Assembly: GCF_900078545.1 (NCBI RefSeq)
Contig: NZ_FLLS01000002.1
Span: 558,001 to 622,000 of the forward strand
DNA from: Olegusella massiliensis
GTDB taxonomy: Bacteria; Actinomycetota; Coriobacteriia; Coriobacteriales; Atopobiaceae
Length of the DNA stretch: 64,000 nt
Direction: 5' to 3'
The notes under the pieces are model-generated. The model saw only the letters and a program-made list of their open reading frames with translations. It had not been told where the DNA came from and searched no databases. The translations under genes were made by a program, and so were the position numbers. Every line of letters starts with the position of its first letter. Position 1 is the stretch's first letter. Of the stretch, positions 33,615 to 53,618 are shown piece after piece.

Positions 33615-33617
33615 CGG

Positions 33618-35257: not shown

Positions 35258-35530
35258 CTATGCCGCCTTTCCGGCCATGCCCGCCGATTCCATCGCCACG
35301 AGCACCAGCCTCTCGGCCATCGCCGCCTTGTCCGCCCGGCTGTACCTCTTCGGCATCCCCTCGGGGAAATAGGTTCCGCAGCGCAGCTTCGGAATGCGCA
35401 GCGTTATCTTGCCGGCCGGCGTCACCAGCCCACGCTCGCGGTAGCCGTTGCGGCTGTTGGCGCCGCCTTTGCAGGCCATGTCGGCCTGTTCGTCCATGAT
35501 TGCGTTAAGGGCCGATTCGAGCAGCGCCCT
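35258..35530 (-). mobile_element. IS256-family transposase fragment
   Basis: About 90 codons: ALLESALNAIMDEQADMACK, then NSRNGYRERGLVTPAGKITL and RIPKLRCGTYFPEG, the typical N-terminal region of IS256/mutator transposases. The DDE catalytic part is gone and the frame ends abnormally (MAGKAA). It lies directly against the cut end of an AAA ATPase gene. No terminal inverted repeats are visible. Confidence 0.75.
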
Positions 35531-35534
35531 GGTG

Positions 35535-36185
35535 AGTGCCTGCAGATGTCCTTCTCGAGGATCTCCTTGATGACGGAGCTCACGTACGCGCGCTTGTCCG
35601 CCATCTTGGGGTAGTCGAGCGCCTTGGGGAAGCCCCCTTCGAGGATGTATCGGTCAAGCTCGGCCACGGGGTTAGGGTCAAGCTCCTGTCCGAGGAAGCG
35701 CTTCATCTCGCGATACTCCTTGAAGCTGAGCGTCTGCACCTCGAACTCGACGTAGCGCCCCGTCAGCTTGGTGGCGAGCTCGCCGGATAGCAGGTAGGAT
35801 TTCGAGCCGGTGATGAAGATGGAGAATCCGCCCTCGGCGCGGAACTCGTTCACCACCTCCTCGAACCCCTCAACGTTCTGGATCTCATCGATGAAGAGGT
35901 ACTTCATGCCGTCAATCGTGAGCGCGGGCTCGATCAGCGCCTCGAGTTGGTCCGGCGTCTTCACCGAGCGGAAGCCGTACCGGTCGAGGTCGAGGTAGAC
36001 GATATGGTCCTCCCGCACCCCCGCGACCCTGAGCTCCTCGGCGATGGTCTACATGAGGCACGACTTACCGCACCGGCGGACCCCGGTGAGGACCTTTATC
36101 ACGCCGTCGTCGTGGTAGAAGCCACGGATCTTCTCGAGGTAGTCCTCGCGTTCGAACAAACGTATGCTGGCCCCAATCTTTCGAC
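35535..36185 (-). pseudogene. AAA ATPase (DUF4143 type), nonsense-mutated and truncated
   Basis: From about 36185 the frame reads IRLFEREDYLEKIRGFYHDD, then Walker A GVRRCGKS, then a TAG near 36050 (CLM-stop-TIAEELR), then YLDLDRYGF and Walker B YLFIDEIQNVEGFEE, and on to VSSVIKEILEKDI. There the IS256 fragment starts. These ATPases are often part of toxin-like or abortive-infection systems. The C-terminal DUF4143 part is missing here; a fragment of that kind lies at 25.3 kb. Confidence 0.7.
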
Positions 36186-39182: not shown

Positions 39183-40463
39183 ATGGGCTTCTTCGATAAA
39201 GGCTTCGACCCAATAAAAGAGGCACGGAAGGCTGAGGCCGCTGCGGGAAAAGAAATCGCAAGCGCTGCCGAACAGGCATCGAATGCCGCTCAAAGCGCCG
39301 CCAATCATACGGGACAGGCCATCGGAGACATTGCAGGCAAGGCAAAGGGCGCCGTTCAGAGCATTGGTGATGCGATCAAGGACGGCCCAGAGCCGAAGAG
39401 CTTCAAATACAACACTGGGTTTGTCGATGAGCGAAATGTTGGCGCATCGCCCCAATCTCAAAGGCTAACTCCGGAACATATGGCGAAAATGCTTGGCGAT
39501 GTGGCTGAAGGAGCCGCAAACGCTGCAAGCGCGGCAACGGCCGGTGCTCAAGGCGCTGTCGCCGCCATCGCAGGTAAAGCGGGAGAAATTGCCGATGGGG
39601 TCAAGCAAGGCTTCGAGAATGCAAGGGCGAAAGAACCGGATGAGTACGAGCTCGCCGTCATCGAATACAACCAAACCTACACCAATCTGGAGTCGGGAGG
39701 GATCGAGCTCTACCAGTCTAGGCTGAGGAGCATCGACCTGCTGAACCTCGTTACCGACCTGGTGAACTCGATCGCGAACACGCCGAAGTCGTTCATGGAG
39801 GATATCGAGGAGGTGTCCCACAAGAAGCGAAGCTTCAAGGAGTCGGAGTCCTTCGCCCGCGAAGAGCTGGACTCGGCACGGAAATCGGCGGCCAGCGCCG
39901 GTGCCGGCGTCGCGGCGGGCATGGCCGTTGCCGGCATAGCCCCATCCGCCGCCATGTGGGTTGCCACAACTTTCGGGACCGCCTCCACGGGCGCCGCGAT
40001 CTCCACGCTGTCGGGCGCTGCCGCGACAAACGCGGCGATGGCCTGGCTCGGCGGAGGCGCATTGGCCGCCGGAGGAGGCGGGATGGCCGCTGGCAGCGCT
40101 TTCCTGGTAATGGCCGGCCCCATCGGATGGGGCGTCGCAGGCGCCACGTTGCTGACCTCCATCGCGCTTTTCGTGAAAAAACAGCACAAGATCGCTGGGG
40201 AAAAGCACGAGGAGCTCTTGTCGGTAAAGAGAAACACCGAGGCTCTTAGGGAGACGTCTGCAGCGATCGGGGCGCTCAGGACAAAGACCGATGCCCTTCG
40301 TGAAGAGCTGTCCAGGTCCTTTATGTCCTCATGCCGCCTGCATGGCGCCGACTACCTTTCCATCTCCGACGACGAGAAACTGGCCTTGGGCTCCTTGGTA
40401 AACAACGCGAAGTCCCTGGGCAGCCTCATCGTCGAGAGGGTGGCCACCCGGGACGGTGAATAG
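39183..40463 (+). CDS. Unknown protein with Gly/Ala hydrophobic-hairpin domain (first gene of a pair)
   Basis: 426 residues; AGGGGCG precedes the ATG. The N-terminal ~150 residues are Ala-rich, amphipathic and probably coiled-coil. Residues ~165-235 form a helical segment, and ~238-335 are a strongly hydrophobic Gly/Ala-rich stretch (GAGVAAGMAVAGIA, GGGALAAGGGGMAAGSAFLV), typical of glycine-zipper hairpins in pore-forming or membrane-inserting effectors. A charged C-terminal coiled coil follows. There is no signal peptide. I do not recognise the family. The next gene begins two bases after its stop, so the pair is co-translated. It lies between the DUF4230/HNH region and an integrase module, a typical place for defence or toxin cargo. 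Confidence 0.75.
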   Translation: MGFFDKGFDPIKEARKAEAAAGKEIASAAEQASNAAQSAANHTGQAIGDIAGKAKGAVQSIGDAIKDGPEPKSFKYNTGFVDERNVGASPQSQRLTPEHMAKMLGDVAEGAANAASAATAGAQGAVAAIAGKAGEIADGVKQGFENARAKEPDEYELAVIEYNQTYTNLESGGIELYQSRLRSIDLLNLVTDLVNSIANTPKSFMEDIEEVSHKKRSFKESESFAREELDSARKSAASAGAGVAAGMAVAGIAPSAAMWVATTFGTASTGAAISTLSGAAATNAAMAWLGGGALAAGGGGMAAGSAFLVMAGPIGWGVAGATLLTSIALFVKKQHKIAGEKHEELLSVKRNTEALRETSAAIGALRTKTDALREELSRSFMSSCRLHGADYLSISDDEKLALGSLVNNAKSLGSLIVERVATRDGE

Positions 40464-40465
40464 CC

Positions 40466-41917
40466 ATGAAAGCAGAAAAGGTACTCAAGAGCTCCCAGGA
40501 GCAGGCCGTCGCCGCATGGATCGGCTTGATCAACCAGATGAGAATCGACGACCTCATCGAGAATCTCAACCGCCAAGACCAGAACCTCGATTCCGCAATG
40601 GAGTCCATGAACTGGGCGCTCGGGAAGATCGAGGACCTCGTCGTTGCGAACAGAGGCGGCAACAAGGGTGTCCATGGGTTCATCGCCGAGGTGGCCGAAT
40701 GCGGGTTGGAGAACGCGCAGAGCCTCGTCCATGGCGATAAACCGGCAATGGAATGGGTTAATGACAACGGACCCGCCGACCTTTTGCGCAACGGCGTCGA
40801 GATACAGGTCAAGTTCGTGAACGCCGGCGGCAAGTTCTCCCTGGACGCCGTGGCCGCCCATTTGCAGAAGTACCCCAATTTCCTCGACAAAGACGGCATC
40901 TACCAGATCCCGAAGGACCATCTCGACGCGGTGCGCTCCCTGTACGAGATGCCAAAGGAGGAAGCGGCCAAGCTGGCGTCCTCGACCGGCGGCCCGTCCT
41001 ACTCAACCTGGAAGAGCATCCATGAGTTCTTCGACTCAAGCGGGTTCAGCATCGATGACCTTGAGGCCTCCCAATTCGAGTACTCGGAGGTCCAGAAGAA
41101 CGCTATCACCGACAAGATGGCCGAGGAGAAGAGCAGGCTCGCAGACGAGAGCGAGCGAATAAAGAGAGACATTTACGAGGAACACAAGCCCACGCCCCAA
41201 GAGGGCGCGAAGGCCGCAGCGGCTGGCGCCGTTCTGGAAGCGGGAACGGCATTCGCCATTTCAATGAAGCGTCATCTCGAGAACGGAAAGCGCATCGGCG
41301 ACTTGACCCAGGACGACTGGGAGGAAATCGCAAAAGATTCCGGCATGGGACTCGTCAAAGGCGGGGTTCGCGGTGGAGCTGTTTATTGGCTGAACAACTA
41401 CACGGCCACGCCCTCATCTGTTGCAAGCGCGCTGGTCACGGCATCATTCGGCGTCGCAGAATGCGCTTACAGGTTCCGCAGCGGCGAGCTTACGGAGATC
41501 GAGTTTATAGAAAGCTCAGAAATCGCGTGTCTCGATGCGTCTGTGAGCGCGTTCTCGAGCTTCGTGGGCCAGGCCATCATTCCGCTCCCGGTTCTGGGCG
41601 CCCTCGTCGGCAACGCCGTAGGCACGACCGTGTACGAATTGGGAAAGGATTTCTATGACAAACGAGAGGCGGAGCTGCTCGCGCACTATGCCCGGGAATT
41701 GAAGGCCCTCGATACTGAACTCGATGGCGAATACGCCGCATGCATCAGCGGCCTTCGTGAGAATATGAGCGCATACATCAGCCTTCTCGAGAAGGCTTTC
41801 TCCCCGAATGTCGCAATGGCTTTTCCCGGCTCCGTTGAGTTGGCGGCAAGCCTTAACGTCCCGGACGGCGAAATCCTGCACACGCGCGAAGAAGTCAATG
41901 ATTTCTTCCTAAATTAG
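40466..41917 (+). CDS. Unknown two-part protein: possible PD-(D/E)XK-like domain plus hydrophobic region (second gene of a pair)
   Basis: 483 residues. The N-terminal domain has VHGFIAEVAECGLENAQSLV, a tryptophan turn (MEWVNDNGPADLL) and D105...EIQVK (E112, Q114, K116), then a helix and KYPNFLDKDGIYQIPKDHLD. The D-(x)n-ExQxK arrangement is what one sees in Mrr-like PD-(D/E)XK nucleases, but I cannot prove it. The middle is charged coiled coil. Residues ~250-400 contain several Gly/Ala hydrophobic segments (AAAAGAVLEAGTAFAIS, VGQAIIPLPVLGALVGNAVG), echoing the hairpin of its partner. Function unknown; a nuclease-like effector working with a membrane-inserting partner is the inference. Confidence 0.75.
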   Translation: MKAEKVLKSSQEQAVAAWIGLINQMRIDDLIENLNRQDQNLDSAMESMNWALGKIEDLVVANRGGNKGVHGFIAEVAECGLENAQSLVHGDKPAMEWVNDNGPADLLRNGVEIQVKFVNAGGKFSLDAVAAHLQKYPNFLDKDGIYQIPKDHLDAVRSLYEMPKEEAAKLASSTGGPSYSTWKSIHEFFDSSGFSIDDLEASQFEYSEVQKNAITDKMAEEKSRLADESERIKRDIYEEHKPTPQEGAKAAAAGAVLEAGTAFAISMKRHLENGKRIGDLTQDDWEEIAKDSGMGLVKGGVRGGAVYWLNNYTATPSSVASALVTASFGVAECAYRFRSGELTEIEFIESSEIACLDASVSAFSSFVGQAIIPLPVLGALVGNAVGTTVYELGKDFYDKREAELLAHYARELKALDTELDGEYAACISGLRENMSAYISLLEKAFSPNVAMAFPGSVELAASLNVPDGEILHTREEVNDFFLN

Positions 41918-41928
41918 AATCAGTCAGG

Positions 41929-42393
41929 TTAAAGAAACAACGGTCGAGCGAAACCCAATCGCTCGGCGTGGTTGAAGATGGCGTTGAGCTGGTTGTTGAT
42001 GATCCTCAGGTAAGTGGGCTTGAAACTGTCGCCGTCGGGCCTCGTGGAGCCCGTGAGGGAGTTCTGCCACCTGACGATGTCGACGGGCCGTATGTCGCAC
42101 ATGCGCATGTCGCCGAAGAACGGGATGAGCTTGCTCTGGATGATGTTCTCCTTGGTGAGCTAGGTGTGCTCGCGGACCCTCGGCCTCACCTCCGCCTCGT
42201 AGACCTTGCAGAAGTCGGCGAAGGTCATGTCCATGGCGTCGTCCTTGAGGGCCTTGAAGTTCTTCTCCCACAGAAGCGCCTCGAGCTCGGTCTGGAATCC
42301 CTTCTTGGTCTTGTGCCGCTTGGCCCCGCGCGCGTCGCGGTAGTAGAACTGCACGTAGAAGAGGCCCGTCTTCTTGTCCTTATAGGCCGGCAT
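41929..42393 (-). pseudogene. Tyrosine integrase, nonsense-mutated and missing the catalytic domain
   Basis: The Arm DNA-binding start is intact (MPAYKDKKTGLFYVQFYYRD), followed by the core-binding domain. TAG at 42160-42162 stands where homologues have Trp (REHT-stop-LTKENIIQS). The same frame continues through FFGDMRMCDIRPVDIVRWQN and LNAIFNHAERLGFARP to TAA at 41929. The catalytic R-H-R-Y domain is absent. Its start overlaps the excisionase gene. The element can no longer excise itself by this enzyme. Confidence 0.8.
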
Positions 42394-42595
42394 TGTTCAC
42401 CTCCGGGAAGTAGCGGGCCTCGAACAGGTCGCTGCGGATGCGTCCGCGGATCACCACGCGCCCGAGGGCCTCCTGCTCCTTGTTCATCTGCCGGATCACC
42501 TCGTAGACGCTGCCTTTCTTGATCTTCAGACGCTCCGCCACCTCGTCGGCGGTGAGCATGCTCGGCCTCGGCGTCCTTGCAACCGGCTGTTCCAT
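42380..42595 (-). CDS. Excisionase-type HTH protein
   Basis: 71 residues with a MerR/Xis-like winged helix (LTADEVAERLKIKKGSVYEV, then RIRSDLFEARYFPE). AGGAGGT lies six bases before the ATG. The gene overlaps the integrase start, the usual xis-int order. Excisionases bend att-site DNA and steer the integrase. It is transcribed from a near-consensus promoter at 42643-42671 that carries an operator in its spacer. Intact, although its integrase is broken. Confidence 0.8.
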   Translation of the reverse strand: MEQPVARTPRPSMLTADEVAERLKIKKGSVYEVIRQMNKEQEALGRVVIRGRIRSDLFEARYFPEVNNAGL

Positions 42596-42734: not shown

Positions 42735-43148
42735 ATGGCGACGGGCGACAACATTCGGCGATACCGCAAGGCGAAGGGCCTGACGCAGGCCCAGCTCGCC
42801 GATGCGGTTGGGCTTACCGAAGGCGCGATCAGGCACTACGAGAGCGGCATCCGCGCGGTGAAGCCCGAGTTGCTGGAGGAGATCGCGAAGGAGCTCGAGG
42901 TCTCCGTAGGCGCGCTCAAGGACTACGGAGTCGAGACGTCGCGCGACCTCGTGGCCCTGCTGCTGCAGCTGGAGGAAGGCTACGGTCTCGTGCCCAGCGA
43001 GGACGGCATGGGCCTGACGGTCGACCCCGGGGCGCCGCATGCCCCCAAGCTCGCGCAGTCGATCAAGACCTGGGCGAAAAAGCGCGCTGAGCTCGAGCGC
43101 GGAGAAGTCGGCGGGGCCGCTTACGCTGATTGGAAGGCCTCTTTCTGA
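42735..43148 (+). CDS. XRE-family repressor of the integrative element
   Basis: 137 residues. The N-terminal HTH (IRRYRKAKGLTQAQLADAVG, LTEGAIRHYESGIRAVKPEL) is a classic Cro/CI domain; the C-terminal ~60 residues are of unknown fold. AGGAGGG precedes the ATG. It is divergent from xis, with three palindromic operators between them, so it is the likely master repressor of excision and its own regulator. The last ~37 codons of this gene and its terminator are repeated 1260 bp downstream. Confidence 0.85.
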   Translation: MATGDNIRRYRKAKGLTQAQLADAVGLTEGAIRHYESGIRAVKPELLEEIAKELEVSVGALKDYGVETSRDLVALLLQLEEGYGLVPSEDGMGLTVDPGAPHAPKLAQSIKTWAKKRAELERGEVGGAAYADWKASF

Positions 43149-43255
43149 CATTTCCCCAGGTAAATTAATGCTTCCTTGCGAACAGCCTCCTGTTTTTTGG
43201 AGGCTGTTCCATTATTCCCGTATGAAATCGGCACCCCGGAAGAACCGTTAGGGAA
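43031..43255 (+). repeat. 225-bp direct repeat, left copy
   Basis: Covers the last part of the XRE repressor gene, its terminator and about 45 bp beyond. It matches 44291-44515 with only a few substitutions and a constant 1260-bp offset. Confidence 0.9.
43180..43209 (+). terminator. Terminator hairpin of the repressor gene
   Basis: GAACAGCCTCC and GGAGGCTGTTC form an 11-bp stem around TGTTTTTT. An identical copy lies at 44440-44469 in the downstream repeat. Confidence 0.65.
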
Positions 43256-43377
43256 ATGTACCCGCATATCGTACGGCAAGGCAAGTGCTGGCGCCTTCCT
43301 TCGCGAGCTCGGCAAGCAAGCCGTGCTCCACACTAGCGATAATGACAAAATGGGATGGGAAGAGAGCTCAAATGAGG

Positions 43378-43920
43378 TCATAGACCCCTCAGCGAGAGGA
43401 GCATTTTCTCCTGTCTCTCGTCGAGCTTCGTTATTGCACCGGTTCTCGAAATCTTGATGAAGTCTCTAAACTCGCTGATGTTTATAGGGGGTTCTATCAC
43501 GGAAATGTCGCCAATTGGCGCATAGTAGACACTCCTCCAATGAAGTCCATCGTTCCTAGCAACGTTATCCACGATGATTTCGCCGCAAACCTTACCCCGC
43601 GCGAAGACGCATCCTCCGATTGACTGGTAGAGCTTCTCAGCTTTGTCCAGAGCCTCGATGAGGGTCTTGTTGGCATTGGGGTTGATATGCGCTTCCATTT
43701 CCTTGTGCTGCTTCTTCAGCGAGCGAATGGTATCTATCGACGTCTTGGAATGCATGAAAAACACTTGCTCTCCGATATGAGCATCCTTGGGTGCCGTCCA
43801 TTCCACGTAGGACTCTTCGAGAACTTCCTCGACATCGAAGTGACCGCGTGCCTTGATGAAGTAAAGAACCTCATCTAGCGATTTGGGAAATGATATGTTT
43901 GTGATGAAAGCTGCTTCCAT
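43378..43920 (-). CDS. Unknown 180-aa protein, possibly EVE/PUA-like
   Basis: Soluble protein. Strand-rich segments such as GEQVFFMHSKTSIDTI, GGCVFARGKVCGEIIVDN and WRSVYYAPIGDISVIEPPIN resemble the short beta barrels of EVE/PUA-like nucleic-acid-binding domains, which are often found in restriction and defence loci. The match is only by eye. The gene lies alone between the two 225-bp repeats, as if carried in with the duplication, and just upstream of the protease/ATPase defence pair. Its own ribosome site is modest. Confidence 0.7.
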   Translation of the reverse strand: MEAAFITNISFPKSLDEVLYFIKARGHFDVEEVLEESYVEWTAPKDAHIGEQVFFMHSKTSIDTIRSLKKQHKEMEAHINPNANKTLIEALDKAEKLYQSIGGCVFARGKVCGEIIVDNVARNDGLHWRSVYYAPIGDISVIEPPINISEFRDFIKISRTGAITKLDERQEKMLLSLRGL

Positions 43921-44290
43921 TCTGCGGCGATCCTTTCAGGCGATATAGAGAGCAATGGAAAGTGCGGAGCTGCAGGTGCCTGGCGGTTTGATTCTATCAG
44001 ACGAGTGCATTGAAGTGCATAAACCCGCTCGATCATAAAGACGCTCCTGACAGCAGCGAGCGCGCCGCCCATTACAGTCTGCGATAAGCCACCGATGAGC
44101 TTCTGTGGCGAGCATTCGGCGCATTGCCTACGATACGGGCAAGCCCCGAGGGGCCGCCGATCGGGCGCCTCCGGATGACCGTCTGTCCCTGCCCCGCAGA
44201 GGGCCGGGGGGTGTTGCCACCTGAGGAGCTCGCCGCTCCGAACGACTGATAGGAGACTGCTGGGCGCGGGCACCACGGCCAGGTAATGTG
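43921..44290. other. Non-coding, probably decayed DNA
   Basis: No intact gene. A minus-strand frame contains GLARIVGNAPNARHRSSSV, but no family is recognised. The region lies inside the repeat-bounded segment. Confidence 0.3.
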
Positions 44291-44515
44291 GGCGCCGCAT
44301 GTCGCAAAGCTCGCGCAGTCGATCAAGACCTGGGCGGAAAAGCGCGCTGAGCTCGAGCGCGGAGAAGTCGACGGGGCCGCTTACGCTGATTGGAAGGCCT
44401 CTTTCTGACATTTCCCCAGGTAAATTAATGCTTCCTTGCGAACAGCCTCCTGTTTTTTGGAGGCTGTTCCATTATTCCCGTATAAAATCAGCGCCCCGGA
44501 AGAACCGTTAGGGGA
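44291..44515 (+). repeat. 225-bp direct repeat, right copy
   Basis: A near-identical copy of the repressor 3' end plus terminator (44440-44469). It is not part of an intact gene; the upstream part of the repressor is absent. Confidence 0.9.
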
Positions 44516-44796
44516 ATAATTGCATGCCCGAATACGGCAAGGTATGCGGCGTCATTCGGCGGCATTCGGGGTTACCGAAACTGCGGAAACGTATCAAGAC
44601 CGTCCGTAGCTGACTACACGCCCACGCATGCCACGACCTTGGAGCTTATTGGTTTGTCGGCCATTCTCCAATTCGGCGATGAGTACAAAACTTCCACCTC
44701 GACCTCATCTCCGCCGTGATTATGAGGTCGATATCACGGTAGGAATTATCTATTTTAGCACCACGACTAGCCTCAGCCTGACAAACCTGATCGCGC
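44516..44796 (+). other. Gap with a weak 50-codon ORF
   Basis: An ORF at 44679-44831 ends in a hydrophobic stretch (LTNLIALIALALHQWQQ) and overlaps the 3' end of the protease gene on the opposite strand. It has no ribosome site, so I do not call it a gene. Confidence 0.25.
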
Positions 44797-47301
44797 TTAT
44801 CGCTCTCGCGCTGCACCAGTGGCAGCAATAGAAACGGCCGTTGCCGAAGTATTTTCTATCCGCTGAGTGATTTCCGAGTAGAGATCTGCCTCCACGCAAG
44901 GTGTCTCGATGCTCACAATCAACGAGTATCGCGCCTCAGAATCAATCTTCCCAAGATACCTGCGAGACCTCCACCATCCAATCACCGGGTATACGGCAAT
45001 AAACTCGATGTCGCTCAGCTCGATTGCGGATGCATATTTGTAGTCGGAATGAATCGAGCCTACGTTTCGGTTGTTGACGCCGAGAAACCAGCCGCCAGAG
45101 CCGCTAGACGCTTTTCCCTCATCCTCATCTCGAACGCTTACGTTGATACGCTTCTCGAACTCTTCCAGGCTCTCGCCCGGCTTGTTCACATCGAAACGAA
45201 GTCCGTGAGAAGAGTACCGATACCTGTCCTTCCACCCAATCTGCCCCGGCCCCGGTTCGATGAAATAAGAAAGGGTCACATGGAGCGTTGCGTCGACATC
45301 GGCAAGCGAAGCGAGCACATCTTTTGGCCAAGGCAGCGTATGAAGGTGCATCTCCCTCATCGTCTCACGCCCTTCCTTCACCTCATACGGATGTAGGGCC
45401 TCTTGAATAATGAGGTTGACACTGTTCTCCTTGCATTCGACTGCACGGCTCAAGTCCGGTATGCCGTAGCCGCAAGCCCTAAGCAGCCTCCTCCGCCCCT
45501 TTGTGGACGTATCCTCGGGCGACCCCTCGGGCGAGTACCTGTCTATCATTGCTTGTGACCAGCGGGCGGAATGCACAAGCAGTCCCCTGATTGTCTCGGG
45601 CCATAGGTCTGGATAGGCATTCTCCAGCTCGGCCGCAATATAGGCGGCCTCGGCAACTGCCGCACTCGTCGCGTTGATGGTGTCCAGCGGGCGTGACGCT
45701 ATGTCAGCGCCAGTGGTAAGCAGCGATAAATCCTGACAGTCTGAATAGTCGGTACCCATCCCGACTATGTTTCCACCGGGGCAGACGACCTCGGGCTTCA
45801 CCGGCGCAATCGAATGTCCCCATTGCAGAGACGTCGTGCTGAATGGGCATAGCTCTCCCGGCACCGCGACGGGCTGATAGCCCGTGGCCAGTATGTCGTC
45901 TTCTTCGACCAGGGCGTTTTCACTGTACGCCCCGACCGTCAGAGCATTCCACGATTGTCCCGGGCTGCGGACGGAGCGAATCTCGTTCGCCTCGGGATAG
46001 ACCGTTCCGTTCAGCATGGACAACGGGATGTTCCCGCCGGAAACAAGCACTAGCTCATGCTCGCTCGAGGGGTCGTCTGCATGAGAGATGGCCTCGTCTA
46101 GCGCAGCAGACCAGGATGTGGGCAAGCCATCGGTGACTTCGCACTCATCAGCAGTGACTCCGGAGCAAAAGACCCTATTCCTCTTCGGCTTTGCCACGTA
46201 AGTCCTGTCCATCGCCTGCTTGACGATTTCACCATACAGGTCAGGACTGTTCTGCCTGCTCAGGTCAAGAATCTTCATGGACTCAAGGGAGTGAGTCACC
46301 TCTACTGGACCCGCAGACAGCAAGCATTCTTTCAAATTTCCATATAAAGCCAGCCCTGCGAGCTTGGTGCCATGGCCGTCTCGATCTCCTGTCCCGAGCG
46401 CATCGTCATAAGCCAGGACGGCATCTTCGTCAACGGCCGGGGACAAGAGCGGATGTCCGCCGTTGATGCCCGTGTCGAGTATGCAGACGCTTGCTTCGCC
46501 GGGCTCAAAAGACGTTCTGCTCAATAGGTCGTCAATCCACTCGCGCTGCTCGGGCCCCTCAAGATTGGCGAAGAACGATGATGCAAGGGGCGCCTCCTTT
46601 ATCTCGGCAAGACCATCGTAGCTGTCCAGGAGGCCCGCAAGATCGGACATATTTGCATACGCCAGCGTAACCATGCGCTCGGGGAACAAGATGAAGGCAC
46701 TCTTGTGCTCGATATGGAGCTTATCAAGCAAAGCGGAATACGCTTCGAACGAGCTGCCGTCCTCATCTTTGCCCGTTCGCAGCCAAACCTCGAGCCACTG
46801 CTTCAAATCCGCTGGGCGCTTATCATCACTACCCGTCCAAAGAGAATCGACGATAGCCAGACGGATGTCCTCGATGCTGGACACCAGCTTCTCGTGGCGA
46901 GGCTTGCCCTTCTTGGTGACCTGGTGCGGATCGCCATATGCCTCCACTCTATCAAGAAAAAAGCGCTCTTCCCCAGATGGGATAAACACTGTCGCCCGTG
47001 TGACGTCACCCACTTGGCGAACATTGAGAAGGCGCACGCCCCGCCGCACATCCTCCAAGCTCCCCGTAGTCAAGTCTCCGTTTTGAGGACCAATAAACTC
47101 AAGGTAGATTCCATGCCTGTCAACAACAGCGAACGCTCTTCTATCGTCGTTCGCAGCAAAGGCACCCTCCAACTCCTTGCAGAGCTTCGCTGCATGCGAT
47201 GAGGGGTCACGATCGATTGACGGCTTGCCCCTGCCGCCCTGAGGGGCAGAATAAGGCTCTTGGTGGCACGTGTTCGTGAGAACGAGGTTCGGTCTCTTCA
47301 T
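44797..47301 (-). CDS. S8 (subtilisin-type) serine protease of an IetAS-like defence pair
   Basis: 834 residues. The catalytic triad is visible: Asp276 in CILDTG, His310 in DGHGTK and Ser546 in NATSAA (the GTSxA-type site). About 270 N-terminal residues precede the catalytic domain, and a long C-terminal beta-rich part follows. There is no signal peptide, so it acts in the cytoplasm. It is encoded five bases after an AAA ATPase in the same direction. An AAA ATPase plus subtilase pair is the composition of the IetAS anti-phage system; the assignment rests on domain content and order. The ATPase probably senses or unfolds, and the protease cleaves cell or phage targets (inferred). Confidence 0.8.
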   Translation of the reverse strand: MKRPNLVLTNTCHQEPYSAPQGGRGKPSIDRDPSSHAAKLCKELEGAFAANDDRRAFAVVDRHGIYLEFIGPQNGDLTTGSLEDVRRGVRLLNVRQVGDVTRATVFIPSGEERFFLDRVEAYGDPHQVTKKGKPRHEKLVSSIEDIRLAIVDSLWTGSDDKRPADLKQWLEVWLRTGKDEDGSSFEAYSALLDKLHIEHKSAFILFPERMVTLAYANMSDLAGLLDSYDGLAEIKEAPLASSFFANLEGPEQREWIDDLLSRTSFEPGEASVCILDTGINGGHPLLSPAVDEDAVLAYDDALGTGDRDGHGTKLAGLALYGNLKECLLSAGPVEVTHSLESMKILDLSRQNSPDLYGEIVKQAMDRTYVAKPKRNRVFCSGVTADECEVTDGLPTSWSAALDEAISHADDPSSEHELVLVSGGNIPLSMLNGTVYPEANEIRSVRSPGQSWNALTVGAYSENALVEEDDILATGYQPVAVPGELCPFSTTSLQWGHSIAPVKPEVVCPGGNIVGMGTDYSDCQDLSLLTTGADIASRPLDTINATSAAVAEAAYIAAELENAYPDLWPETIRGLLVHSARWSQAMIDRYSPEGSPEDTSTKGRRRLLRACGYGIPDLSRAVECKENSVNLIIQEALHPYEVKEGRETMREMHLHTLPWPKDVLASLADVDATLHVTLSYFIEPGPGQIGWKDRYRYSSHGLRFDVNKPGESLEEFEKRINVSVRDEDEGKASSGSGGWFLGVNNRNVGSIHSDYKYASAIELSDIEFIAVYPVIGWWRSRRYLGKIDSEARYSLIVSIETPCVEADLYSEITQRIENTSATAVSIAATGAARER

Positions 47302-47306
47302 TCCGC

Positions 47307-48272
47307 TTAGCCGACCTTATCCTCGCAGTCGTATATGGACAACCTATCCTCGCAGAGCCGTTGGAAAAGCTCGTCGCACAGCGGGGAGTCAGTCAATAAG
47401 GATTCTTTTACCGCATCTTCACAAAGGCGCGTGATGTCTGCCTGGCAAAGCTGCGAGAGCTTGGCGGCCGTCTCGTCGGTAAGGGAAAGCGCCGGGTCAT
47501 AGGCACCCGTACGGTTCGCCACGATGCGCTTAACCTCTCTGGTTGTCGGAAGTTCGTAATGCATAACGTCGTCGAAGCGTCGAAAGAGCGCCTGGTCGAG
47601 CATTTTCCTGTTGTTCGTAGCGGCGATGATTATGCTCTCAGAGGTATCCACCTCGATGAACTGCAGAAACGAGTTCAATATGCGGCGCATCTCGCCAACC
47701 TCGTTGTCTCTGCTGCGATCGGCCCCGATGGCGTCGAACTCGTCGAACAGGTAGACGGCGCGATTGCTGGCAATGGCTTCGAAAATCTGGCGAAGCCGGG
47801 AGCTAGTCTCGCCAAGGTACTTCGTGATGAGCTTATCAGTCTGTACGATGAACAGGGGCATGCCGAGATCGGCGGCGATCACCGAAGCCGTCATAGTCTT
47901 GCCCGTGCCCGGGTCCCCCTCGAGCAGGAGCTTGCGACGGCAGCTTAGGCCGAACGAAGCGAGCCTCTTCCTTTGGCGATACTCGTCTAGCATGCGGTCG
48001 ATCTTCTCGGCGATTTCTGGCGAGACAACCAAATCGTCCAGTCGAACCTCCGGGAATGAGACAAGGAACAGATTGTCCTTATTCGCAAGACTAATGACAT
48101 TGCCTTTTGCACGAGTGGATGCATCGACCATGGCAGTGATTTCCCTACCCAAAGTGGTGTGGCCAACGCGTGTTTCTGATGCGGCTATGCGCAATGCCGC
48201 AGTCTTGAAACGTTCGTTATCTTGGTCGTAATGTGCTTTAATAAGGGCTTTTATCTGGTCGCCGGTTGCCAT
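47307..48272 (-). CDS. AAA+ ATPase of an IetAS-like defence pair
   Basis: 321 residues. After ~100 N-terminal residues comes a single AAA+ module: Walker A GDPGTGKT (119-126), Walker B VYLFDEFDAIG, sensor 1 IIAATNN, and arginine finger region FRRFDD. The short C-terminal helical lid is present. GGAGG lies upstream of the ATG at 48272. It is first in the two-gene operon with the S8 protease. In IetAS this component is IetA. Adjacent integrase remnants and repeats make this a defence island. Confidence 0.85.
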   Translation of the reverse strand: MATGDQIKALIKAHYDQDNERFKTAALRIAASETRVGHTTLGREITAMVDASTRAKGNVISLANKDNLFLVSFPEVRLDDLVVSPEIAEKIDRMLDEYRQRKRLASFGLSCRRKLLLEGDPGTGKTMTASVIAADLGMPLFIVQTDKLITKYLGETSSRLRQIFEAIASNRAVYLFDEFDAIGADRSRDNEVGEMRRILNSFLQFIEVDTSESIIIAATNNRKMLDQALFRRFDDVMHYELPTTREVKRIVANRTGAYDPALSLTDETAAKLSQLCQADITRLCEDAVKESLLTDSPLCDELFQRLCEDRLSIYDCEDKVG

Positions 48273-48648
48273 GGGACACCTCCTCTCGAATCTTAAAAAT
48301 TCTACCGACCATCATAGCAACGCGGAAGAGACTTCTCTGCCGAATTTGATAATTGACCGCAAACAACTTGTTTTTTTCATTCGGTTATGACGTAACAAGA
48401 CTTAGCGTGATCCAGCATCCCGTCAGGCTTTGCATGCACGCCTCCAACAAGCACATCCCTGCTTGTCCGTCCAAGAGACGCGACTCCTTGAGAATAGATG
48501 AAGCCCGAGGACGCCATGAGCCCCACCAATCGAGCCCGGCTCACAGCACCCATGGGAAAATGCGGGAGAATGCTCGATATTAAAATCGTGAAAGGCCGCA
48601 CATTTCGGGCTGCTTTCACGTTGTAGTGGGTAGAGGAGGTGATTTGGC
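48273..48648. other. Gap with promoter region and a hairpin before the sigma factor
   Basis: It holds the IetAS promoter area (AT-rich, 48330-48400) and a hairpin CGTGAAAG...CTTTCACG at 48587-48620 that sits just upstream of the sigma factor's ribosome site and could act as terminator or attenuator. An 80-codon minus-strand frame at 48377-48619 has no recognised family. Confidence 0.4.
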
Positions 48649-49145
48649 TTGCCTAGACGGGAAACCGGCGGCCTGGATACTAACCGGGCACGCGAGATTG
48701 CCGAGGAGTGCTACGACGACGTACTGGCGTACTGCAGGCGCCACGCGCCCGCCGGGCACGAGGCGCCCGACCTCGCGCAGGAGACGTTCCTGCGCGAGGT
48801 CGGGCCAAAGGGTACCGCGAGCGCGGCAAGCCCATCGCCTATCTCATGCGGATAGCGAGAAGCGTGTGCGTCGACGCCAGCCGCAAGAGGCGGCTGGAGA
48901 CGGTGAGCCTCGAATTCGAGGTCGCTGCCAGCGAGCGCGACGGGCGCGAGGCTGATCTCGACCTCGCGTTGGAGCGGTTGCCGGGTGAGCTGCGCGAGAT
49001 TGTGGAACTGCGGTTTTTCCTGGGCCTCGGGTTAAGCGAAGTCGCCCAGGCCCTCGGGATAAGCCGTTTCGCAGCGCGCAGGCGGATAAAAGCGGCGCTG
49101 AAGGTGCTCGAAGAGGACTTGAAGGAGGGTGGTCTTGATGGGTAA
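48649..49145 (+). pseudogene. ECF-like sigma-70 factor with a frameshift
   Basis: From a TTG with GAGGAGGTGA upstream, 54 codons encode sigma region 2 (ECYDDVLAYCRRHAPAGHEA, PDLAQETFLREVGPKG). A one-base loss near 48812 then shifts the frame, and the protein resumes as YRERGKPIAYLMRIARSVCV and region 4 (LRFFLGLGLSEVAQALGISR, FAARRRIKAALKVLEEDL). Adding one G in the GGG run restores a ~166-aa sigma factor, so this could also be a sequencing error or a phase-variable run. It is the first gene of an operon with a membrane protein and an ABC exporter, whose usual order is sigma, regulator, ATPase, permease. Confidence 0.7.
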
Positions 49146-49938
49146 GGCGGAGCGAGCAAGGCTCAAAATCGAGCTCTCCCAGCACTATTCCGCCCAACGG
49201 GAGAAGGCGGGATCGAACACTATCGATTCACTCGCGCGGGCCATGGCCGCCGAGGACGCGCGGATGCGCAAAGTCCGGGGTCACAGGATGGGGTTCGCCC
49301 CGTTCGTCGCGTCCCAGGTGCGCTACGTCCCTTCATGGACCTGGATCGCGCAGCTGGGAATCGTCGCGCTCATGCTCGCCGCGGCGAGCAGCGCCGCGGA
49401 CGCGAGCCTCGCGAAGCTCGTCGTCGGCGTCCTCTCCGCCGCAACCGTGCTCGTCGGCGTGCCCAGCGTGCATGCGAGCAAGCTGCACGGCGTGGCCGAG
49501 CTTGAGTACTCGTGCCCCAACAACGCGGCGAGCGTGATGGTGGCGCACCTGATCGTTCTGGGCTGCTCGTCGTCGCTGGTGGTCGCCCTCATGGTTGGCG
49601 CAGTCGCGTCCTCTCTGGACGTCGACGCGCTCTCGGTAGCGCTTTGCGCCTGCCCGCCGTTCTTTTGCTCCTGCGCCGGATCGCTAGCGCTGATTAGGAG
49701 GGCGGCGCCCTCTTCTGCCGCAGTGCTCTGCTGGGCATGGGCGGCCGCGTGCTGCGCCGTGCTCATGACCCTTGCGAGCATGTGGCCGGACATGTACGGG
49801 ACGGCCTCTCTCGCCTCGTGGATCGCCGCGGCCGCCATGGCGCTCGCATGGCTCGTGCGCGAGGTCGCGATGCTCGTACACGCGGCCTCTGTGGGGCTGG
49901 ACGCGTTCTCACCGCATATGGCGAAAACCTACCACTAG
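49138..49938 (+). CDS. Membrane protein co-transcribed with the sigma factor
   Basis: 266 residues from the ATG at 49138, which overlaps the sigma factor's stop. A ~65-residue charged cytosolic head (KAERARLKIELSQHYSAQRE) precedes six hydrophobic segments. The order sigma, membrane protein, ABC suggests an anti-sigma-like or sensor role, with the cytosolic head holding the sigma factor. I do not recognise the family. It is Cys- and Ala-rich in the membrane part. Confidence 0.7.
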   Translation: MGKAERARLKIELSQHYSAQREKAGSNTIDSLARAMAAEDARMRKVRGHRMGFAPFVASQVRYVPSWTWIAQLGIVALMLAAASSAADASLAKLVVGVLSAATVLVGVPSVHASKLHGVAELEYSCPNNAASVMVAHLIVLGCSSSLVVALMVGAVASSLDVDALSVALCACPPFFCSCAGSLALIRRAAPSSAAVLCWAWAAACCAVLMTLASMWPDMYGTASLASWIAAAAMALAWLVREVAMLVHAASVGLDAFSPHMAKTYH

Positions 49939-49952
49939 ATAAGGATTGCAGT

Positions 49953-50828
49953 ATGGAACTCACATTGGATCGGCTGACCAAGCAGTTCGGGGCGAGGATA
50001 GCCGTAGACCGCGTGTCGGCCACGCTTTCCCCGGGTGTGACGGGGCTTCTGGGCGCGAACGGCGCGGGCAAGACCACGCTCATGCGCATGGTCTGCGACG
50101 TGATGCGCCCCACCAGCGGGCAGGTTCTGCTCGATGGGCGCGATGCCCTGTCGATGGGCGACGAGTATCGGGCGCTGCTCGGCTACCTCCCGCAGGATTT
50201 CGGCTACTACCCCGACTTCTCGGCGCTCGAGTTCATGCGCTACATGGCCACGCTCAAGGGCTTCCCCAGCCGAGACGGCCGCGCCCGCAGCGTGCAGCTG
50301 CTCGATGAGGTCGGGCTTGCCGACGACGCGCGGCGCAAGGTGAAGACCTTCTCCGGCGGCATGAAGCAGCGCCTCGGAATCGCCCAGGCCATGCTCAACG
50401 ACCCCGCCATCCTGGTGCTCGACGAGCCCACGGCCGGCCTCGACCCCAAGGAGCGCGTGCGCTTCCGCAACCTCATCGCCAGCTTCGCCCAAAACAAGAT
50501 CGTGATACTTTCCACCCACATCGTCAGCGACGTGGAGTTCATTGCCAGCCGCATTCTCGTGATGCGCGAGGGCGGCTTCATCATGGACGGCACGCCCGAG
50601 CAGGTGATTTCGCAGGCCGCGGGCAAGGTGTGGGAATGCCATGTGGAGGCGCATCTTGCCGAGGAGATGTCGGCGCGCATGTCCGTGGCCAACGTGCACT
50701 ATGCCGCAGACGGGCACGCGGTGGTGCGCGTGGTGGCGGACGCCTCGCCCATAGAGGGGGCGCGGGCGGTCGAGCCCACGTTGGAAGACCTGTACCTGCT
50801 CGCGTTCCGCGACGCGGGCATCCGTTAG
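49953..50828 (+). CDS. ABC transporter ATP-binding protein
   Basis: 291 residues: Walker A GANGAGKT, Q-loop LPQDFG, signature FSGGMKQR, Walker B ILVLDEPTAGLD and the H-loop STHI. It is a single-domain exporter ATPase like those of bacitracin or lantibiotic exporters (the FGYYPDFSALEFM loop is common there). The longer ORF from 49737 is another frame extension; ATG 49953 is the natural start. It pairs with the permease nine bases downstream, in the sigma-led operon. Confidence 0.92.
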   Translation: MELTLDRLTKQFGARIAVDRVSATLSPGVTGLLGANGAGKTTLMRMVCDVMRPTSGQVLLDGRDALSMGDEYRALLGYLPQDFGYYPDFSALEFMRYMATLKGFPSRDGRARSVQLLDEVGLADDARRKVKTFSGGMKQRLGIAQAMLNDPAILVLDEPTAGLDPKERVRFRNLIASFAQNKIVILSTHIVSDVEFIASRILVMREGGFIMDGTPEQVISQAAGKVWECHVEAHLAEEMSARMSVANVHYAADGHAVVRVVADASPIEGARAVEPTLEDLYLLAFRDAGIR

Positions 50829-50837
50829 GAGAACACA

Positions 50838-52061
50838 ATGGGAGAGCTCATCAAGTTCGAACTTAGAAAGATACTCGGCAACCGTGCGGGTATGGTGGCG
50901 TGCCTGGTCGCGCTCGCCCTGCTGACAGGCATGGCCTTTATGAACCTGGCGACCACAACCACGCGCGACCATGCAACAGGCGCCGTCGTGGAGGGACTCG
51001 CCGGCCAGCAGGCATACCGCAACAACGAGGAGTCGCATGCCGGCGTGCTCGACGATGCCCGAATCGCGAAAGATGCAGCTGTCCTCGATCGCGCCAACGA
51101 GCTCGCAGAGGGGACCCCCGGCTATTACGACCTGTCGAACGACGCGATAATCGCCCAGTACGGTCTCGAGTTCTGGCAGCAGACGAGGGCCGTCGCCTCC
51201 GACAACTACTACAACGAGATTGTGGGTACGCTCGATAGCGCAAGCCCGCGCGCGACGAGCCTGCGAGAGGGCTCGCTTGCGAGGATAGACACCACGCTGT
51301 CCGACGGCTTCGAGCACTATTTCCCCTACAGCGATGCCGAGGCATCCTATTGGCACGGCATGTTCGACCAGATTCAGTGGCCGGTTGAATTCGGCTACGC
51401 CGGCGCATGGAAGAACGCCTTGGATTGGGCGAGCTCCCTTGCTTTCGCGATTGTGGCGCTGTGCATCGCCCTCTCGGGCGTGTACGCGGGAGAGTACCAG
51501 AACCGCACCGCCGCTGTGGCGCTGCCGACGAGACGCGGGAAGAGGGCTCTTCCCGCCGCCAAGGCCATCGCGGCGCTAGCGTTCGCCACGGCATACTGGT
51601 GTCTTTGCTTGGCGGTCGTCGTGGGGATCAACGTGGCAGTGTGCGGCGCTGGAGGGTGGGATCTGCCGACGCAGGTGGTCTTTGGATTCGACAACCCGTA
51701 CCCGCTCACAGTCGGGCAGGCCATGCTCGCCGTCTACGGCCTCGGCTATCTCATCGCGATCGGCATGGCGGCGCTCACGCTGCTCCTGTCTTCGAAGATG
51801 CGCTCCACGATGCCGGTGGCCATGATTCCGATGGCGGTGGCCTTCCTCGGGATGTTCGCCCTCTTCATCCCTCCGCTCGCGAAGCTTGGGGCCCTCACGC
51901 CCATGGCGGGGATGAGCTTCGCATTCAGCCGCATGGTCAGCTTCGCGGCGGGGACGGCGGTAATCGATCTTCCTACTGCGTTGGCGATACTCTACGCAGT
52001 CCTCCTAGTGGCTTGCACACCGCTTGCGATGCGCGCTTTCGCAAGGCATCAGGTAGCCTAG
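50838..52061 (+). CDS. ABC-2-type permease
   Basis: 407 residues with a first helix (GMVACLVALALLTGMAFM), a large external loop of ~170 residues and five more helices in the C-terminal half. The topology matches BcrB/ABC-2-type exporter permeases with one big extracytoplasmic loop. It is fed by the ATPase just before it. Likely role: export of a peptide, lipid or antibiotic; the substrate is unknown. Confidence 0.88.
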   Translation: MGELIKFELRKILGNRAGMVACLVALALLTGMAFMNLATTTTRDHATGAVVEGLAGQQAYRNNEESHAGVLDDARIAKDAAVLDRANELAEGTPGYYDLSNDAIIAQYGLEFWQQTRAVASDNYYNEIVGTLDSASPRATSLREGSLARIDTTLSDGFEHYFPYSDAEASYWHGMFDQIQWPVEFGYAGAWKNALDWASSLAFAIVALCIALSGVYAGEYQNRTAAVALPTRRGKRALPAAKAIAALAFATAYWCLCLAVVVGINVAVCGAGGWDLPTQVVFGFDNPYPLTVGQAMLAVYGLGYLIAIGMAALTLLLSSKMRSTMPVAMIPMAVAFLGMFALFIPPLAKLGALTPMAGMSFAFSRMVSFAAGTAVIDLPTALAILYAVLLVACTPLAMRAFARHQVA

Positions 52062-52291
52062 AGAAGGGGGAAGGGCGGGTGCCTACGTACCCGCCTGCTG
52101 CGCATACGCATCCGAGAACCGGCGAAGCGGCAGCTCTGATGATATGTAGATTGTTTTGCCAGGCGGCAAAGGGCCGTGCCGCAGTAAAGCCCATCCTCTC
52201 GTTAAGAATTCGCTATCGCAGAAGGAAGAGAGGCGCCATAGGCGAATCTGGAGCCGCGCGGGGCCTCACGGATGGAAACGAGTCGGTTCGG
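52062..52291. other. Spacer between the convergent ABC operons
   Basis: No gene. GC-rich with several inverted stretches but no clean terminator. Confidence 0.3.
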
Positions 52292-53002
52292 CTACAGCTT
52301 TCGCGCCTCGTAGAGCCTTGCCGCGATTGCGGCAGAAGCCGCGTAGAGGGCGATGGAGGCCGCAGCGCTGGCGACAGCGAGCATAGTCGGCCTGTTGGGG
52401 TCCGCAAAGATACCATCGAGGAATTGGGCGACGAACCGCGTTCCGTTCGAGCCAATCGCTGCAGACGCAAGTATCACGACCAATGCGATAAGCATGGGGA
52501 TAAAGCGCACTGCCTTCGTCATGCCGGGCTGCATTGTGAGCGGCAAGGTAACCGCGAGTGTCACGGTTATGAAGAGCAGGCCCATCGAGGCGGAGAGCGT
52601 GTAGGCTCCCGGATCGATTCCTTCGCCGAGCGTGCGCACGCCGTTAACGTCATAGCCCATCGCCATGAAGGCGCTTGCGAGCACCATGGCGGCGAGCGAC
52701 GCGACTAGCCCCACGACGAGGCCGACAACCACTGCTATGGCGAGACTCGCGTAGCGTCCGTACACCACGTTTGCTCGGGAGATCGGCATCGCGAGGCGGT
52801 AGCGTTCCCAGCCGTTGCGCTCATCGAGCGCAAGGACGGTGATTGCGCAGGTCCCGCCCACCGTTACGCTGATGAGCGGCGAAACGATATAGGGGTTTTC
52901 CATCACGAACGCGAGCAGGATGCCGAGCGCGAGGCCGACGACTGACTGCTGAGCCAGGTAATTGCGCATGATGATGAGGTCGGAAAGAGTCATCGTCTTC
53001 AT
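52292..53002 (-). CDS. ABC-2 family permease (ATPase partner decayed)
   Basis: 236 residues, six hydrophobic helices (for example QSVVGLALGILLAFVM, AIAVVVGLVVGLVASLAAMV). It has the ABC-2 transporter permease layout, and the motif MENPYIVSPLIS is familiar from short exporter permeases of Gram-positives. Its start overlaps the stop of the ATPase pseudogene before it. Without a partner ATPase it is likely non-functional unless it uses another ATPase. Confidence 0.8.
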   Translation of the reverse strand: MKTMTLSDLIIMRNYLAQQSVVGLALGILLAFVMENPYIVSPLISVTVGGTCAITVLALDERNGWERYRLAMPISRANVVYGRYASLAIAVVVGLVVGLVASLAAMVLASAFMAMGYDVNGVRTLGEGIDPGAYTLSASMGLLFITVTLAVTLPLTMQPGMTKAVRFIPMLIALVVILASAAIGSNGTRFVAQFLDGIFADPNRPTMLAVASAAASIALYAASAAIAARLYEARKL

Positions 53003-53618
53003 CGGATTTCTCCCTTCAACACGAGGTTCATGTAGCCGTCTATGTCGGCACGGTCAAGCGCGATTCTGGGGAACCGTTCCCCGAACGCGAACCGATCGGG
53101 AACGAGAATCACCGTACTGTACGGCTGCCTGATGAAACGCATCTCGCCAGAAGCGAAGAACGAGCTTTTCGCGACGGAATCGAACTCCGCCGCATGACAT
53201 TGTGCGACGCCCGCCACGTCGGTAATGACGTCCTTTATGACAGAAAACGCGGTACGGCCCGCTTCGATGCAGACTATGTAGTCAGCAATCTTCTCGAGGT
53301 CGCTTGTGATGTGGCCGACATGAGAATGCCGCGCGAGAGGTCAGAGACTTTCTTGTCCTCCGGCAGGTCGAACTCGCCCAGGCACCGCTTGAAGGCCGCC
53401 TGGTCCCATCGTCCGTAAGCTGACCGCATGAGCGAGTCGGCAGCAGCTACTGTTATCTCTTTGGGCAGCGCGCAAGTGTCGAACACCACGCCGATGCGCT
53501 GCTTGGTCGCCGCTTCGCGCGGGGCTGTGGTTCCGAAGAGCCTCACCTTCCCTCCGTGTGATCGGATGAGGCCAAGAACGGCTTTAAAGCCGAGGCCGGG
53601 GAAGCAGGCGCGACTCAC
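52999..53618 (-). pseudogene. ABC ATPase pseudogene lacking Walker A and Walker B
   Basis: The frame begins at GFKAVLGLIRSHGGKVRLFG, i.e. just after where Walker A should be, and runs through the Q-loop part (KQRIGVVFDTCALPKEITVA) to KKVSDLSRG. The signature/Walker B segment is deleted, and sequence resumes with ILMS, a one-base shift, then HITSDLEKIADYIVCIEAGR and the C-terminal domain to 52999. The deletion seems to have used the repeated SRG coding sequence. Confidence 0.75.

What the first reader, a model, noticed from the sequence alone, without database searches (positions are those of the whole stretch)
44797..48272. IetAS-type anti-phage pair
An AAA+ ATPase with intact Walker motifs is followed five bases later by a cytoplasmic S8 protease with a complete triad. 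This domain pair matches IetAS; few are known from Coriobacteriia as far as I recall.
Basis: partly seen in the sequence, partly recalled or inferred. Interest (0 to 1): 0.65.

Follow-up and report, generated by a model that had tools for sequence, protein, structure and literature searches.

The report
IetAS-like protease toxin and ATPase guard
This bacterium carries a mobile two-gene module, a protein-cutting enzyme and an ATP-driven partner that probably restrains it, of a kind linked to self-poisoning and virus defence, and relatives of the restraining gene occur alone in several phage contigs, as if phages borrowed the antidote.

Summary
On the minus strand, a 321-aa AAA+ ATPase gene (47307-48272) is followed after 5 nt by an 834-aa subtilase gene (44797-47301). 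Walker motifs, arginine fingers, the D276/H310/S546 triad and N424 are intact and conserved in 36-39 relatives. Both genes are under purifying selection and present in 1 of 5 genomes of the genus. Three other genera of the family hold close copies (96%, 86%, 86%) in differing surroundings, so the unit is mobile.

It belongs to the IetAS superfamily along its whole length, but to a divergent branch: NCBIfam's IteA/IteS cut-offs are not met, and PADLOC scores are 225/118 bits against about 478/920 for another IetAS type in the same class. The family is published as a toxin-antitoxin pair and listed as anti-phage. Function here is inferred.

Extra finding: intact IetS was never seen without IetA upstream (52 of 52 loci with enough sequence), whereas IetA occurs alone in 13 viral-collection records that hold no S8 peptidase; in 6 of 6 checked loci a nearby gene has many phage homologues. 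The solitary state arose at least five times. That is what a phage-borrowed antitoxin would look like; it is untested.

The parts
47307..48272 (-). ietA-like gene: 321 aa, N-terminal helical segment (residues 4-53, three helices) plus classical AAA+ ATPase; proposed antitoxin / regulator
   Evidence: Pfam AAA 1e-28; PADLOC IetA 225 bits over residues 3-305 versus 121-142 bits for two FtsH controls of the same genome over the AAA part; model pLDDT 85
44797..47301 (-). ietS-like gene: 834 aa, N-terminal region (1-265), S8 catalytic domain (270-613), C-terminal domain (to about 800); proposed protease toxin / effector
   Evidence: Pfam S8 1.3e-50; PADLOC IetS 118 bits versus 33-48 and 20-27 bits for two other subtilases; model pLDDT 83, best structural match KP-43, Z 26.2, rmsd 3.0, 378 aligned
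47302..47306 (-). 5-nt gap between ietA stop and ietS start (translational coupling likely, inferred)
   Evidence: sequence; gaps of -101 to +51 nt in 52 relatives
48273..48294 (-). leader with a strong Shine-Dalgarno-like AGGAGG before ietA; ietS has none as good
   Evidence: sequence read out; no sigma-70-like promoter found by the consensus scan
44834..48314 (-). extent of the block shared (85% DNA identity) with relatives L023 and L019 (in L019 to 48294): essentially the two genes alone
   Evidence: blastn

Best explanation
It is an intact, horizontally acquired two-gene module of the IetAS superfamily that works as a protease toxin with an ATPase antitoxin, most likely used as an abortive-infection defence and/or to hold its mobile element in place. 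Proposed cycle: ietA, first in the operon with the better ribosome-binding site, is made in excess; a ring of IetA uses ATP to keep IetS inactive; when infection, or loss of the genes, removes or disables IetA, IetS cuts cell (or phage) proteins and growth stops. Shown here: gene order, intact catalytic residues, purifying selection, mobility, full-length homology to another IetAS type, absence of intact IetS without IetA, occurrence of IetA without IetS. Taken from papers on other members: the IetS-type protein is toxic and the IetA-type protein neutralises it. Inferred only: hexamer, trigger, targets, and phage protection by this copy.
For: Intact catalytic residues. dN/dS about 0.13 and 0.07. 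Profile-profile match to another IetAS type: IetS 99.9%, E 3.7e-35, 754 columns; IetA 100%, E 7.3e-62, 318 columns including the N-terminal segment. IetA directly upstream on the same strand in 52 of 52 loci with enough upstream sequence. Solitary IetA with no S8 peptidase on the record in 13 records. In G231 both genes are broken: two frameshifts in ietA, stops at codons 696 and 832 in ietS. Mobility: 95-96% identical copy in another genus; pair alone shared with two further genera. Defence or candidate-defence genes nearby in relatives: AbiD plus type IIG RM, type I RM, REase_I, PDC-S51; PDC-M09A/B in the window. Papers: toxin/antitoxin behaviour of SGI1 S025/S026 (PMC5006074, passages), Mycoplasma T133/A132 (PMC8562856, passages), JCVI _0133/_0132 (PMC6755753, passages).
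Against: NCBIfam IteA/IteS equivalog cut-offs not met, so behaviour of tested members may not carry over. No experiment on this copy or, as far as I saw, on this branch. IetA's arginine fingers and an aromatic pore-loop residue (Y/F in 39 of 39 in alignment A4; H in 2 of 13 solitary ones) would also suit an unfoldase that feeds the protease. SGI1 sgiAT gave no post-segregational killing from its own promoter. The flanking genes scanned were picked by eye; 4 of the 10 gave no hit.
Confidence: 0.62

Rival explanations
1. Two-part ATP-dependent protease: IetA unfolds bound phage (or damaged) proteins and hands them to IetS, as ClpX does for ClpP; IetA is an activator and not a restraint.
For: Classical-clade AAA+ fold close to PAN, FtsH and Vps4 (Z 25.1, 23.9, 23.0); aromatic residue at pore-loop position 152 in 39 of 39 and arginine fingers R231/R232 in 39 of 39 in alignment A4; obligate pairing from the IetS side.
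Against: Deletion of the ATPase alone is lethal and deletion of the pair is not (PMC6755753); co-expression neutralises the protease (PMC8562856); IetA without any S8 gene in 13 viral-collection records.
Confidence: 0.2
2. Purely an addiction / incompatibility module of mobile elements, without effect on phages.
For: 477 plasmid records carry IetS relatives, 330 of 477 typed conjugative; Yamamoto 2009 title on pTiC58 stability and incompatibility (seen only in the reference lists of other papers); integrase, excisionase and phage-type remnants near the pair.
Against: Here it is chromosomal and the neighbouring integrase is decayed, yet the pair is under purifying selection. Repeated carriage of solitary IetA by contigs with phage genes is not expected if IetS never harms phages.
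Confidence: 0.14
3. Housekeeping protein quality control.
For: FtsH/PAN-like ATPase domain.
Against: Absent from 4 of 5 genomes of the genus and from about 386 of 396 genomes sampled in the class; decayed in G231.
Confidence: 0.04

Closest known systems
IetAS (PADLOC IetA/IetS profiles; the other type present in this class in G074, locus L169)
   Same: AAA+ gene directly upstream of a cytoplasmic-type S8 gene; homology along both proteins, N-terminal segment and C-terminal domain included
   Different: About 17% (IetS) and 29% (IetA) profile identity; the branch of this window scores 118/225 bits where members of the other type that I scanned score 804-920 / 477-479 bits
NCBIfam anti-phage ATPase IteA (NF042959) and peptidase IteS (NF042956)
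   Same: Best NCBIfam hit for IetA; partial hit in the S8 domain for IetS
   Different: Far below both equivalog cut-offs: 191 of 510 and 29 of 900 bits
SgiAT of SGI1, Mycoplasma A132/T133, JCVI _0132/_0133 (published toxin-antitoxin pairs)
   Same: Same domain pair and gene order; ATPase neutralises or is needed against the protease
   Different: Their sequences were not fetched or compared here; T133 is 757 aa against 834 aa
FtsH / PAN / Vps4 ATPases
   Same: AAA+ fold
   Different: IetA is a 321-aa stand-alone ATPase without membrane part or zinc protease domain
Subtilases KP-43, SubHal, subtilisin BPN'
   Same: S8 domain; KP-43 and SubHal also align up to residue 798 (Z 26)
   Different: IetS has an N-terminal region of about 265 residues without any Pfam match and by eye no secretion signal

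Membership tests
IetAS superfamily | AAA+ ATPase gene immediately upstream of S8 peptidase gene, same strand | tested here: met
   5-nt gap; 52 of 52 relatives with enough upstream sequence
IetAS superfamily | IetA more like IetA profiles than ordinary AAA+ proteins are | tested here: met
   225 bits over residues 3-305; FtsH controls of the same genome 121 and 142 bits, AAA part only
IetAS superfamily | IetS more like IetS profiles than ordinary subtilases are | tested here: met
   118 bits over 269-818; two other subtilases 33-48 and 20-27 bits; profile-profile E 3.7e-35 over 754 columns to another IetAS type
IetAS superfamily | intact ATPase and protease catalytic residues | tested here: met
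IetAS superfamily | protects against phage | not testable with these tools
   needs plating assays
NCBIfam IteA/IteS equivalogs | score above curated cut-offs 510 and 900 bits | tested here: not met
   191 and 29.4 bits; not filed as this equivalog
AAA-ATPase / subtilase toxin-antitoxin pair | protease toxic alone, neutralised by ATPase | not testable with these tools
   reported for other members; the asymmetry of solitary genes is consistent
Type VII secretion mycosin | score above NCBIfam cut-off 278.75 | tested here: not met
   32.6 bits

The most novel reading that the evidence does not exclude
Phages have repeatedly taken ietA without ietS and use it as a borrowed antitoxin that disarms the host's IetAS-type protease: a counter-defence class not named in the papers that I searched. 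The window's pair belongs to the branch (divergent from the curated IteA/IteS models) among whose IetA proteins these solitary genes fall, so it could be used to test this, and to test whether IetAS is an abortive-infection toxin-antitoxin system.
Probability: 0.4. Interest if true: 0.75.

Novelty: new variant of a known kind. Interest (0 to 1): 0.5.

Why it matters
The passages I read say that the mechanism of IetAS is still not, or not fully, described (PMC9958689; PMC12755874). This branch is frequent on plasmids yet annotated mostly as 'S8 family peptidase' and 'ATP-binding protein', and lies below NCBIfam's curated cut-offs, so surveys may under-report it. The one-sided pattern (protease never alone, ATPase alone in several phage contigs) turns the mechanism into a simple neutralisation test in laboratory strains and predicts a class of phage counter-defence genes.

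Tried and rejected
Sigma-70-like promoter scan of 44300-48720: none found. Rfam on the whole window: no match at gathering thresholds. Pfam on the N-terminal regions of IetA (8 sequences) and IetS (2 sequences): nothing near a cut-off. I thought of a MIT-like domain for the three N-terminal helices of IetA and an I9-type propeptide for the strand-helix order of IetS residues 168-236; both are recalled resemblances without a supporting match and I do not claim them (the structural rows covered mainly residues 59-321 and 243-623). A 69-bp stretch at 48427-48495 that recurs near ietAS in L019 and L023 has a single copy in this genome and stays unexplained. IetS relatives in viral contigs by the single-sequence query: none; the alignment query found 42 loci. 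The 228-bp repeat 43030-43257 / 44290-44517 does not flank the pair; dropped as a mobility mark of it. 42 of 392 class genomes match PADLOC IetS PDLC02198 at 1e-6, but most of the rows have about 27-37 bits in the S8 part only and I do not count them. Named phages with IetA-like hits: the 4 that I opened all have an S8 gene, so they are pairs, not solitary IetA; the weaker AAA hits in Rhodobacter, Vibrio and other phages were not followed up. The 6 weak IetA hits without adjacent IetS and not at a contig edge were left out of the solitary set. Rows dropped: L022, L028, L029 from the pairing count (broken, split or cut); L123 and L124 as copies of L122; L127, L132, L159 from the second tree (short downstream sequence, or neighbours that look host-like or unclear by eye).

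Full report
WHAT IS THERE. On the minus strand a 321-aa AAA+ gene (47307-48272) is followed, 5 nt after its stop, by an 834-aa S8 peptidase gene (44797-47301). Pfam gives AAA 1e-28 and Peptidase_S8 1.3e-50. The residues that matter are in place: Walker A 119-126, D177/E178, N220, R231/R232 in the ATPase; D276, H310, S546 and N424 in the protease. The named IetS residues are identical in 36 of 36 relatives, and the Walker, sensor and R231/R232 residues in 39 of 39 IetA relatives. ietA has an AGGAGG ahead of its ATG; ietS starts right after ietA with only a weak match (sequence), as expected if the first product is made in excess (inference).

IS IT KEPT, AND HOW DOES IT MOVE. Against the copies in L023 (G182) and L019 (Atopobiaceae bacterium UBA1367) dN/dS is 0.076/0.607 and 0.076/0.586 for ietS, 0.053/0.695 and 0.051/0.789 for ietA. 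The genome has no second copy. Of 5 genomes of the genus 1 has it. Of 396 genomes sampled from the class 13 gave a match at 1e-3: 10 belong to this branch (two of them, G100 and G131, fragmentary or split), G074 has another IetS type, and G032 and G368 have ordinary subtilases. L019 lies in a contig of the same length as the G352 contig (737,769), so I take them as the same genome; G352 is in the window's family, which puts that family at Atopobiaceae, class Coriobacteriia. G231, of another genus, shares 44579-53586 at 91-95% DNA identity, ECF sigma and ABC genes included; L023 and L019 share only the pair, 44834 to 48314 and 48294, at 85%. In G231 ietA has two single-base frameshifts and ietS has stops at codons 696 and 832. 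The class holds two deep sets of this branch, the Atopobiaceae copies of this type and L024-L027. Base composition does not mark the pair as foreign.

WHAT FAMILY. PADLOC: IetA 5e-67, IetS 7e-35. Controls: the two FtsH proteins of the same genome score 121 and 142 bits on the IetA profile against 225 for this one; two ordinary subtilases score 33-48 and 20-27 bits on IetS profiles against 118. So the IetA profile alone is only moderately specific, and the pair plus IetS decides. Yet another IetAS type in the same class (G074, L169) scores 478 bits (IetA) and 920 bits (IetS). None of the 36 members of this branch in alignment A3 had a better PADLOC IetS hit than 1.1e-46, and the NCBIfam IteA/IteS cut-offs are missed. 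Profile-profile comparison joins the two types over their whole length: IetS E 3.7e-35 over 754 columns, IetA E 7.3e-62 over 318 columns. Hence: member of the IetAS superfamily, divergent branch, not the NCBIfam equivalog. Relatives are common elsewhere: 477 of 72,556 plasmid records, all under 60% identity, 330 of 477 conjugative; 2 of 50,697 phage records; 42 loci in viral contigs.

ARCHITECTURE. IetA model: pLDDT 85, three N-terminal helices, then AAA+; best PDB matches PAN (Z 25.1, rmsd 2.5, 249 aligned), FtsH (23.9) and Vps4 (23.0). IetS model: pLDDT 83; S8 domain with a C-terminal part that aligns with KP-43 and SubHal to residue 798 (Z 26.2 and 26.0). The N-terminal 265 residues have no Pfam match.

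CONTEXT. In the window: PDC-M09A/B, a candidate defence pair, at 39183-41917; a tyrosine-integrase remnant near 41959-42396 and an excisionase-like gene; a split terminase at 33255-34922. In relatives I picked 10 flanking genes by eye and scanned them: six matched PADLOC families (AbiD, type IIG RM, type I methylase, type I specificity, REase_I, PDC-S51) and four did not. On plasmids, an integrase or recombinase lies close in 3 of the 6 records opened for this branch (none listed nearby).

ONE-SIDED PAIRING. Starting from IetS, I examined 56 loci (42 viral contigs and 14 others; L022, L028 and L029 left out): 52 have IetA directly upstream, gap -101 to +51 nt; three are cut at 76, 3 and 298 nt upstream; one had no usable ORF. 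Starting from IetA, 80 of 167 viral-contig relatives were kept by the tool: 51 are paired, 8 run into a contig edge, 21 have no adjacent IetS; 15 of the 21 have strong IetA scores. After dropping two copies, 13 records remain: 0 of 13 have an A3-type IetS (that search had no positive control) and 0 of 13 any Peptidase_S8, while 6 of 6 records known to be paired rang in the same search. The records are fragments of 4 to 73 kb, so absence is per record. Walker B, sensor and arginine fingers are kept in 13 of 13 and Walker A GKT in 12 of 13 (L133 has GKS); 3 of 13 lack the N-terminal segment. One neighbouring gene from each of six loci was searched against phage records and all six have phage homologues: terminase (L137, L113), baseplate (L104), DNA polymerase (L110), RecT-like (L135, where the two best rows are unannotated), head-tail connector (L101). 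In a tree without the three least sure rows, 10 solitary IetA are scattered among 39 paired ones: at least 8 changes on the tree, at least 5 forced by well-supported branches. Some of these changes could be a loss and a later regain of ietS. Named phages with IetA-like hits that I opened (4 of 4) carry pairs.

MECHANISM. Published members: the SGI1 subtilase is the toxin and the AAA-ATPase the antitoxin (PMC5006074, passages); Mycoplasma T133 cuts E. coli counts by 3-5 logs and A132 neutralises it (PMC8562856, passages); loss of the ATPase gene alone is lethal while loss of both is not (PMC6755753, passages). SGI1's pair did not give post-segregational killing from its own promoter. That IetAS protects E. 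coli from phage is recalled (Gao et al. 2020; the paper is not held); NCBIfam names the family anti-phage. The one-sided pairing above is what a toxin-antitoxin design predicts: a protease without its ATPase is not tolerated, an ATPase alone is harmless and, for a phage, possibly useful. I therefore favour restraint of IetS by IetA (0.62) over a two-part feeding protease (0.2) and a pure addiction module (0.14).

NOVELTY. The pair is a new variant of a known kind. The idea of solitary phage IetA as counter-defence was not among the papers listed by my searches for IetAS, IetA/IetS and IetA with anti-defence terms (listings, with passages of PMC10286901, PMC9958689, PMC12755874, PMC8765062, PMC11878078 and PMC10924106 read). 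No paper in the library holds IetAS together with Coriobacteriia. Preprints and most subscription papers are not in that library.

Noticed in passing
39183-41917 (+): Two adjacent genes matching PADLOC candidate phage-defence pair PDC-M09A/B (2.7e-129, 2.7e-217), next to the integrase remnant.
   Followed up: no
33255-34922 (+): Terminase large subunit split over two ORFs: prophage remnant.
   Followed up: no
41959-42595 (-): Tyrosine-integrase N-terminal half with an in-frame stop and an excisionase-like ORF; similar to an intact integrase/HTH set left of ietAS in L019.
   Followed up: partly
43030-43257 and 44290-44517: 228-bp direct repeat, 96% identical, bracketing ORF 43378-43920 whose weak CARF/Csx1 hit is not convincing.
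   Followed up: no
48427-48495: 69-bp stretch found upstream of ietA here and downstream of ietS in L019 and L023; single copy in this genome.
   Followed up: partly
35422-36018 (-): AAA_14 fragment matching PADLOC PDC-S01, probably a truncated gene.
   Followed up: no
L169:2804-9431 (G074): The other IetAS type in the same order, followed by a gene that by eye looks like DUF3800 and a bSEFIR-type gene.
   Followed up: partly
L101, L104, L110, L113, L122, L133, L135, L137, L139, L155: Solitary IetA genes on viral-collection records without any S8 peptidase.
   Followed up: yes
L139, L159, L132: Solitary IetA-like genes that lack the N-terminal three-helix segment; L132 by eye sits among host-like genes (valyl-tRNA synthetase, ankyrin repeats).
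   Followed up: no
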